Source of the DNA: a virus
Virus record (IMG/VR): IMGVR_UViG_3300005860_000070
Location: 1 to 22,928 of that record
Length of the DNA: 22,928 nucleotides
Reading direction: 5' to 3' (one strand)
Shown here: one piece after another, positions 21,183 through 22,928 of the stretch
Layout: every line of letters starts with the position of its first letter
Numbering within the stretch: position 1 is the stretch's first letter
Made by a program: the position numbers and the translations under genes
The notes under the pieces: model-generated
Databases searched by the model: none
Told to the model about the DNA's origin: nothing
What the model saw: only the letters and a program-made list of their open reading frames with translations

Positions 21183-21542
21183 TTAAAGTAATTTTTTTAA
21201 TTTTTCTATTTGTTTTTGATACCATTCAATATTTAAAAAGCTGGGAGGCGGTTTTTGTTTTGCTTTTTTCTCTAATTTATTATACCATCTTTTACTTTTA
21301 AGCGCCACGATTTTTCCTGATAAACTTTTATCGACATGCGTTAATTGAAAATGACAAGCTTGACAAAGTGAAATCCCATTATCTAATTCATATCTTAAAT
21401 GAGCGTAGCGGCTTTTAGGAAAAAAATGATGAACTTGATTTGCTGGGCGTCCGCATAATAAACATTTAGGATTTTTTAAAAGGCAAACTTGATAAAATAA
21501 TTTATCGGCTTCTCTCTTGAGTTTTTTTTTCTTTTTGTTCAT
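21183..21542 (-). CDS. HNH endonuclease (phage recombination/nuclease type)
   Basis: The 119-aa protein has a very basic start (MNKKKKKLKREADKLFYQV), the zinc/HNH pair CLLCGRPANQVHHFFPKSRY and RYELDNGISLCQACHFQLTH. The first His pair and the CxxC motifs are complete, so the domain should be functional. Small HNH proteins of this type cut DNA in recombination or packaging; this one resembles general HNH nucleases more than LAGLIDADG-like enzymes. It is the last gene of the right-hand leftward block, beside the terminator. The second half (KPPPSFLNIEWYQKQIEKL) is a helix of unknown role. Confidence 0.78.
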   Translation of the reverse strand: MNKKKKKLKREADKLFYQVCLLKNPKCLLCGRPANQVHHFFPKSRYAHLRYELDNGISLCQACHFQLTHVDKSLSGKIVALKSKRWYNKLEKKAKQKPPPSFLNIEWYQKQIEKLKKLL

Positions 21543-21593: not shown

Positions 21594-22007
21594 TTATTTT
21601 AGACATTTTTTTATTGTATTTCGCCAATGGTATATATTATTCCAGTTTTCTTCGAGCATATAATTCGCACATTTTTTCTGAATTTCAGCGTCGAAGATTT
21701 GGGATAAATTTTGAGCCAACCCGTATTTGTTGATACAAAATTGTTTAAAGGTTGCCCGCTTAAATTGGAGAATGCCAAAACTTGTTCCGTGATCTCCGAT
21801 ACATCTTTCTTTTTTCTGGGTTTGACAGATTTGACTTTCATAATAAATTAAACAATCCAAAAGTGCTGCATATTTAAGCGGTTTTCGATATTGGATAGAT
21901 TGAGCCTTAATCGTAGTGCCATTTAAAATGATAATCCGATTCGTTTCAGGATTTTCAATTAGAGGAGCCAGAGCCTCTTGCCACGACCACAAGGAAATCA
22001 GAATCAA
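21594..22007 (-). CDS. Lysozyme-like endolysin / lytic transglycosylase
   Basis: The core reads LLDCLIYYES, then CIGDHGTSFGILQFKRATF, KYGLAQNLSQIFDAEIQKKC and a final helix with NWNNIYHW. This is the lysozyme-like fold with catalytic Glu in YYES and GxSxGxLQF, seen in transglycosylases and phage lysins. The uninterrupted frame starts at a TTG (22007) inside a hydrophobic run (LILISLWSWQEALA), so the leader would be only about 14 residues. A complete signal peptide appears if reading begins at ATG 22039 and shifts -1 near 22022 (see the leader entry). The cell-wall enzyme role is supported by the adjacent holin-like gene (35 bases upstream of this start). Confidence 0.72.
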   Translation of the reverse strand: MILISLWSWQEALAPLIENPETNRIIILNGTTIKAQSIQYRKPLKYAALLDCLIYYESQICQTQKKERCIGDHGTSFGILQFKRATFKQFCINKYGLAQNLSQIFDAEIQKKCANYMLEENWNNIYHWRNTIKKCLK

Positions 22008-22041: not shown

Positions 22042-22224
22042 TTATTTTAAAGATTCGGCGAAGCGGTCAATTGTTCTAACTGCTATAAACCCACTTAAAA
22101 TCGTTAGAAGTCCTTGTGCGATAAAATCAGGAATAATTCCTTCTGATTTTAACACTCCAACAATAGCAATTAGAATCAATGCCCAGAATCGCCTACTCTT
22201 TAAAAATGACCAATCTCCTATCAT
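22042..22224 (-). CDS. Holin-like two-span membrane protein
   Basis: The 60-aa protein has a short charged start (MIGDWSFLKSRRF), a first hydrophobic segment (WALILIAIVGVL), a short loop (KSEGIIPDFI), and a second one (AQGLLTILSGFIAV). It ends with a charged RTIDRFAESLK. Size, two spans and charged ends match small class II-type holins. It lies 35 bases before the endolysin start and after the 84-aa gene. Holins open the inner membrane to release or activate the lysin. The function is inferred from size, topology and neighbours. Confidence 0.65.
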   Translation of the reverse strand: MIGDWSFLKSRRFWALILIAIVGVLKSEGIIPDFIAQGLLTILSGFIAVRTIDRFAESLK

Positions 22225-22236
22225 AGTTTAAATTGT

Positions 22237-22491
22237 TTAATTTTCGACCTTTTTTTGGCTATTTAGGGATTTTTTCATTCGTTTCATTAACATCTTTTCC
22301 ACTACTTTTCTGGGTTTTAATGTAACTTCATTACCTTCAAAAACAAATACTGACCTAAAACCAGGAAAGTCGGATGCTTCAATCAAAATATAATCAGCAC
22401 TTTCTTTAGGAAGTTTTGAATATATTCTATTCAAAACGAGAAGCATTCCTTTTTTAAGTTCTCTGGTATATTTAATTTTTTGAATCCTCAT
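22237..22491 (-). CDS. 84-aa basic protein of unknown function
   Basis: The protein is small and basic (MRIQKIKYTRELKKGMLLVL; ESADYILIEASDFPGF; a Lys-rich C-terminal helix). No family or membrane segment was recognised. It lies between the peptidase (17-base gap) and holin, so a lysis accessory is possible. The AAAGGTCGAAAAT motif falls in its last codons, near its own stop. Confidence 0.5.
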   Translation of the reverse strand: MRIQKIKYTRELKKGMLLVLNRIYSKLPKESADYILIEASDFPGFRSVFVFEGNEVTLKPRKVVEKMLMKRMKKSLNSQKKVEN

Positions 22492-22508: not shown

Positions 22509-22928
22509 TTATTTTTCCTCAATTACTTTAACCCGCACCCAATTATAATTATCAATTTTTTCGCCGATTTTTATAACTTGTAATGTTTGATTTGGGTTTA
22601 AAATAGTTAAAATTCTTCCACTTAATCCTGGTGTTTCTCTCAATCTTAAACCTACAACTGGCCTTACTAATGCTCCTTCTTGTAAAGTTAAAGTTCTTAA
22701 ATATTCTGCGGCGCACCAACCTTCTCGATAAGTTGGCAAATCCATTACAATCCAAGCTTCAAAAGGTGGATAATCTTTTGGAATATAAAACAATCCTTTA
22801 TCTCCCCAATCTGTCCCCCAAGAATTTTGTCCTATTAAATAATTTTCATTGTATCCAATGATACAATTATGAACTGCTACGCCTTCAGCAATATAAGAAT
22901 TATCTTCATCTACTTCTAAATTCCAAAC
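22509..22928 (-). CDS. Papain-like (C1) peptidase with SH3-like tail, interrupted by an intein C-terminus (partial)
   Basis: A frame open to the right edge encodes 139 residues here. Residues 1-21 are VWNLEVDEDN plus SYIAEGVAVHN, matching the C-terminal blocks of Hint/intein domains, with the splice junction HN|C (Asn at 22868-22866, Cys at 22865-22863). The extein continues CIIGYNENYLIGQNSWGTDW, then GDKG. NSWGTDWGDKG is the papain-family Asn motif, and GYN follows where the family has HAxxxxGY. Downstream, about residues 88-138, RETPGLSGRIL and NYNWVRVKV look like a bacterial SH3 domain, often cell-wall binding. A wall-degrading or host-protein-cleaving enzyme is likely; the N-terminal catalytic Cys and most of the intein are outside. 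Confidence 0.78.
   Translation of the reverse strand, partial: VWNLEVDEDNSYIAEGVAVHNCIIGYNENYLIGQNSWGTDWGDKGLFYIPKDYPPFEAWIVMDLPTYREGWCAAEYLRTLTLQEGALVRPVVGLRLRETPGLSGRILTILNPNQTLQVIKIGEKIDNYNWVRVKVIEEK

What the first reader, a model, noticed from the sequence alone, without database searches (positions are those of the whole stretch)
22863..22928. Intein C-terminus inserted at the active site of a papain-like phage enzyme
The right edge encodes an intein-type ending (LEVDEDNSYIAEGVAVHN) directly joined to Cys and then to the GYN...NSWGTDWGDKG segment of a C1 peptidase. Papain-family enzymes have the catalytic His a few residues before GY, so the intein appears to sit next to it and to separate Cys/His from the Asn motif. 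Splicing would then be required to make the enzyme active, a possible on-switch for lysis or another late step. Inteins in phage replication and packaging genes are known; one in a papain-like/SH3 phage protein would be unusual.
Basis: partly seen in the sequence, partly recalled or inferred. Interest (0 to 1): 0.85.

Follow-up and report, generated by a model that had tools for sequence, protein, structure and literature searches.

The report
Intein in a phage papain-like enzyme
A phage gene for a papain-like, probably cell-wall-cutting enzyme carries a self-splicing protein insert (intein) three residues after its catalytic histidine, and a second, different phage carries one at exactly the same spot, so the working enzyme should appear only after the insert splices itself out.

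Summary
The window is a whole IMG/VR contig. Its right end codes (minus strand) VWNLEVDEDNSYIAEGVAVHN^CIIGYNENYLIGQNSWG. The first 21 residues match the intein C-terminal splicing model TIGR01443 over its cut-off; the rest is a papain-family (C1A) C-terminus followed by an SH3 domain. A phage relative, 83% identical over the 117 residues after the +1 Cys, lacks the insert and reads GHAV^LIIGYN. The junction therefore lies three residues after the catalytic His, with Cys and His on one side and the Asn motif on the other. A second, unrelated phage contig (L021) has an intein ending at the same site (GIFVHN^CLYGYD); its intein-free sibling reads GGHET^CFYGYD. A pattern scan of 84,980 species genomes found no further case. 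The N-terminal halves of both inteins lie beyond the contig ends, so blocks A/B and any homing endonuclease are unseen. SH3 or peptidoglycan-binding tails and a holin-like neighbour suggest an endolysin. Most likely this is an ordinary homing intein in a conserved active-site motif of an unusual host protein. Splicing should be needed for activity, but nothing shows that it is regulated; the 'lysis switch' idea is untested.

The parts
22866..22928 (-). C-terminal 21 residues of the intein (VWNLEVDEDNSYIAEGVAVHN); the rest of the intein is beyond the contig end
   Evidence: TIGR01443 over cut-off; alignment to other inteins; motif specificity
22863..22865 (-). +1 Cys codon of the C-extein, at the position of Leu187 of the intein-free relative, three residues after catalytic His184
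22509..22865 (-). C-extein: end of a C1A (papain-family) peptidase plus C-terminal domain, with stop codon
   Evidence: 83% identical to L001
22824..22826 (-). Codon of the active-site Asn (NSWG; papain Asn175)
   Evidence: phmmer alignment to papain
22530..22652 (-). SH3_3 domain (probable cell-wall binding)
   Evidence: PF08239, 31.4 bits, over cut-off
22237..22491 (-). 84-aa ORF of unknown function directly downstream
   Evidence: no family match
22042..22224 (-). 60-aa hydrophobic, holin-like ORF (by eye; no family match)
   Evidence: no match
21594..22007 (-). 137-aa ORF, possibly transglycosylase-like by eye (ES...GTSFGILQF); not confirmed
   Evidence: no significant family match; structure model too poor

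Best explanation
A phage gene for a C1A (papain-family) peptidase with a C-terminal SH3 domain, probably part of the lysis module, is interrupted by an intein inserted in the active-site motif GHxx^CxxGY, after the second residue following the catalytic His. The precursor should hold catalytic Cys and His in the N-extein and Asn-Ser-Trp in the C-extein; His-Asn at the intein end and Cys at +1 fit ordinary Cys-class protein splicing, which would rejoin GHAV-CIIGYN and make the enzyme active. The most likely reason for the place is intein homing: inteins persist in conserved motifs where imprecise loss would kill the host protein. Shown: the C-terminal splice junction, its exact place, the intein-free alleles, the same site in a second phage. 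Inferred: the N-terminal half, splicing, a homing endonuclease, the endolysin role.
For: TIGR01443 over cut-off and C1/SH3 domains. Codon-exact junction against intein-free L001. Second phage, same site, with its own intein-free sibling. +1 residue Cys occurs naturally at this position in 6 of 21 intein-free relatives. Papain fold of the L001 protein. Mycobacteriophage inteins also sit beside invariant active-site residues (PMC5050341).
Against: No N-terminal half, TxxH motif or endonuclease was seen for either C1A intein, because both contigs end inside the intein. The window's own catalytic Cys and His are not in it. Splicing was not tested.
Confidence: 0.88

Rival explanations
1. Conditional splicing: the intein is kept as a timer or sensor that holds the lysis enzyme inactive until late infection or until a redox or other cue.
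For: Position splits the catalytic residues; same site in two phages; conditional splicing is documented for other inteins (PMC5790916, PMC6195587, PMC7360933, abstracts).
Against: No regulatory feature was seen; inteins beside active-site residues are the rule without any switch (PMC5050341); most relatives, including the 83% identical L001 gene, do without the intein.
Confidence: 0.06
2. Assembly chimera: an intein fragment from another gene was joined to the end of a peptidase gene at the contig edge.
For: The segment is the last 63 bases of the contig, where misjoins gather.
Against: Codon-exact junction followed by the Cys that splicing needs; the same junction in an unrelated phage contig with a longer intein tail.
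Confidence: 0.03
3. Degenerate or split element: the intein has lost its N-terminal half, or the gene is split in two (trans-splicing).
For: The upstream half is not visible; fractured genes with split inteins are known in phages (own knowledge).
Against: Intact His-Asn-Cys junction; the L021 frame runs at least 112 residues upstream of its junction without a break, as in a cis intein.
Confidence: 0.03

Closest known systems
Phage inteins in TerL, RecB-like nuclease, DNA methylase, RDF, ThyX and others (PMC5050341)
   Same: Same kind of element; sits beside an invariant active-site motif; sporadic, with intein-free alleles
   Different: Known hosts in that survey are DNA or nucleotide enzymes, terminase and portal; no peptidase or lysis enzyme (Table 1)
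Intein in the HD-domain protein of the L021 phage (G001)
   Same: Ends GILVHN^C, inserted directly behind the catalytic HD motif; in the genome that also has the second C1A intein
   Different: Complete, PF14890 at 63 bits; other host protein
Xylellain and other C1A peptidases (PDB 3ois, papain, cathepsins)
   Same: Papain fold of the L001 homologue; conserved His and NSWG motifs
   Different: No intein; phage proteins add SH3 or peptidoglycan-binding tails
Papain-like N5 domain of mycobacteriophage Lysin A (PMC3314691)
   Same: Papain-family domain within an endolysin
   Different: None of 224 such endolysins is interrupted by an intein or intron

Membership tests
Intein | C-terminal splice motif ending in Asn, with C/S/T at +1 (blocks F/G) | tested here: met
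   TIGR01443 26.6 bits, cut-off 15.6; VHN^C
Intein | In-frame, exact insertion relative to an intein-free homologue | tested here: met
   C-terminal boundary only: homology to L001 starts at the junction; L021/L006 likewise
Intein | N-terminal nucleophile (block A) and TxxH (block B) | not testable with these tools
   Beyond the contig end; searches for the missing half found nothing
Intein | Self-splicing | not testable with these tools
   Needs expression
Intein | Homing endonuclease (frequent, not required) | not testable with these tools
   Beyond the contig end
Peptidase C1A | Asn of NSWG and the GY strand | tested here: met
   PF00112 over cut-off; alignment to papain
Peptidase C1A | Catalytic Cys and His | tested here: inconclusive
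   Off the contig; in L001 they are Cys60 and His184, nearly invariant in A3
Peptidase C1A | Papain fold | tested here: met
   Met for the intein-free homologue L001
Phage endolysin | Cell-wall-binding domain | tested here: met
   SH3_3 over cut-off in the window; PG_binding_1 in relatives L017 (over cut-off) and L011 (just under)
Phage endolysin | Next to a holin | tested here: inconclusive
   60-aa hydrophobic ORF two genes downstream; no family match
Phage endolysin | Peptidoglycan hydrolysis | not testable with these tools
   Needs an assay

The most novel reading that the evidence does not exclude
The intein works as an on-switch: phage lysis enzymes of this family are held inactive as precursors and are switched on by conditional protein splicing, which would explain why two unrelated phages carry an intein at the same catalytic-site position.
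Probability: 0.06. Interest if true: 0.85.

Novelty: new member of a known kind. Interest (0 to 1): 0.48.

Why it matters
Phage inteins are known mainly from DNA and nucleotide enzymes: the mycobacteriophage survey lists no peptidase or lysis enzyme as host (PMC5050341), and none of 224 mycobacteriophage endolysins is interrupted (PMC3314691). An intein at the His motif of a papain-family phage enzyme, found twice, adds a host-protein class and an insertion site, and gives a simple test system: the catalytic residues are split until splicing, so enzyme activity would read out splicing.

Tried and rejected
Search for the N-terminal half: relatives of L001's protein, a profile of phage C1A proteins (31 loci; no intein in any locus whose site could be read), DNA patterns for WGHA[VI]C and GGHAxC followed by an intein-like start, relatives of the window's major head protein: none gave it. 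Junction pattern HN[CST]xxGY...N-x-WG in 84,980 species genomes: 31 matches, none an intein-bearing C1A peptidase by inspection of the translated sites. Phage and plasmid collections by tblastn: no C1A gene with an intein; the Rhizobium hit is an intein in a DNA methylase. 380 genomes of the phylum of a Paceibacterota locus: five matches, of which three were read out as inteins in other proteins and one as an intein-free C1A-like gene; the fifth was not read. The viral match L027 is chance. The single-sequence model of the 137-aa neighbour was too poor to use. Literature: no report of an intein in a papain-like or endolysin gene among the results looked at; subscription journals are mostly not in the library.

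Full report
What is there. The window is a complete IMG/VR record of 22,928 bases. On the minus strand its right edge holds an open frame without a start, 22928 to 22509: VWNLEVDEDNSYIAEGVAVHN CIIGYNENYLIGQNSWGTDWGDKGLFYIPKDYPPFEAWIVMDLPTYREGWCAAEYLRTLTLQEGALVRPVVGLRLRETPGLSGRILTILNPNQTLQVIKIGEKIDNYNWVRVKVIEEK*. NCBIfam's intein C-terminal splicing model TIGR01443 matches residues 2-22 over its cut-off; Pfam gives Peptidase_C1 for 22-51 and SH3_3 for 93-133, both over cut-off. A regular expression for intein C-termini, partly shaped on these sequences, found 7 distinct matches in 2.55 million residues of six-frame translation of everything then held, each in an intein context.

Where the insert sits. 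A phage relative, L001, has the same gene without the insert...GEKVWGHAVLIIGYNKNYLIGQNSWGTDWGDKG.... DNA identity is 83% over 356 bases and begins at the first codon after the +1 Cys. The +1 Cys aligns with papain residue 162, which puts the Asn of NSWG at 175; His is three residues upstream of the +1 position in all 21 intein-free phage relatives aligned.

A second case. A DNA pattern for HN[CST]xxGY...N-x-WG across 2.9 million viral contigs gave four matches; three are chance and one, L021, reads VYDLTVDEYNNFALSAGIFVHN^CLYGYDRIEGIFLGVNSWGTKWGD. TIGR01443 (E 4e-8, over cut-off) and PF14890 (E 1.6e-7, just under cut-off) recognise it. Its intein-free sibling L006 reads GGHET^CFYGYDRIEGVF, 67% identical over 96 residues from the +1 Cys on. 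The L021 phage carries a further, complete intein inside an HD-domain-like protein directly behind the HD motif, with PF14890 at 63 bits (the HD match itself is weak). The extein part of the pattern (GY...N-S-W-G) fits 21 of the 22 rows of alignment A3 (the other has NSYG). The same pattern in 84,980 species genomes found no intein-bearing C1A gene.

Function. The L001 protein models as a papain fold (mean pLDDT 80; best PDB match xylellain, then cathepsins and papain). Relatives end in SH3 or peptidoglycan-binding domains, partly just under the curated cut-offs, and structural neighbours in the viral library include proteins annotated as peptidoglycan binding-like and, more weakly, endolysin. 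Downstream in the window follow an 84-aa ORF, a 60-aa hydrophobic, holin-like ORF and a 137-aa ORF that by eye could be a transglycosylase; no family model confirms either. In L001 the peptidase gene lies in one stretch with a small hydrophobic ORF and a confirmed SLT transglycosylase. A lysis role is the most likely reading (about 0.65), not a proven one.

Mechanism. Ordinary Cys-class splicing is expected: His-Asn at the end, Cys at +1. The spliced product GHAV-CIIGYN would resemble the natural GGHAVCIVGY of intein-free relatives (L002, L072). Mycobacteriophage inteins also sit beside invariant active-site residues (PMC5050341), so the place needs no regulatory explanation. Whether splicing is timed or conditional cannot be told from the sequence; I give it 0.06.

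Limits. Both intein-bearing contigs end inside the intein, so no N-terminal half was seen. One possible reason, untested, is a fork in the assembly graph between intein-bearing and intein-free alleles. A chimera at the contig end is unlikely because the junction is codon-exact, is followed by the residue splicing needs, and recurs at the same codon in an unrelated phage. The pattern scans would miss inteins that do not end in His-Asn and peptidases without the NSWG or GY motif, so 'two cases' is a lower bound.

Noticed in passing
L149 8549-10363 (record G001 21549-23363): Complete intein in an HD-domain-like protein of the L021 phage, inserted right behind the HD motif (IMHDL^CFPKGT...GILVHN^CSNGYP), with a DUF559-like (Vsr-type by eye) nuclease segment inside.
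   Followed up: partly
L118 1063-1812 and similar ORFs in L117, L120, L126, L129, L131, L136: Phage ORFs with a GGHAI motif upstream of a YDQGxEGACVGFS motif; in L118 an LLNSWG motif follows. This looks like a papain-like enzyme with the His segment moved in front of the Cys segment (order His-Cys-Asn). No Pfam match for L118.
   Followed up: partly
window 1-21000 against L083 and L001: Portal, major head protein and sugar-enzyme genes of the window resemble L083 (about 42-51% identity), while the peptidase gene is 83% identical to L001, whose head genes did not match: the peptidase gene seems to move between phages.
   Followed up: partly
L007, L008, L009; L145: Inteins with very similar C-termini (VWNLEVDEDNT..., VYNVEVEEDNSY...) inserted in DNA methylase genes of three viral contigs and of a Rhizobium plasmid.
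   Followed up: no
L152, L153, L154: Inteins in genomes drawn from the phylum of a Paceibacterota locus with C-termini close to the window's (VFNLEVDEDNSYITEFAAVHN in L152); L152 and L153 share one host protein. This may hint at such hosts for the window's phage.
   Followed up: no
window 22928 and L021 1: Both contigs that carry an intein in a C1A gene break off inside the intein, 63 and about 335 bases from the junction.
   Followed up: no
window 21183-21542: Free-standing HNH endonuclease ORF (PF01844 over cut-off) close to the peptidase gene.
   Followed up: no
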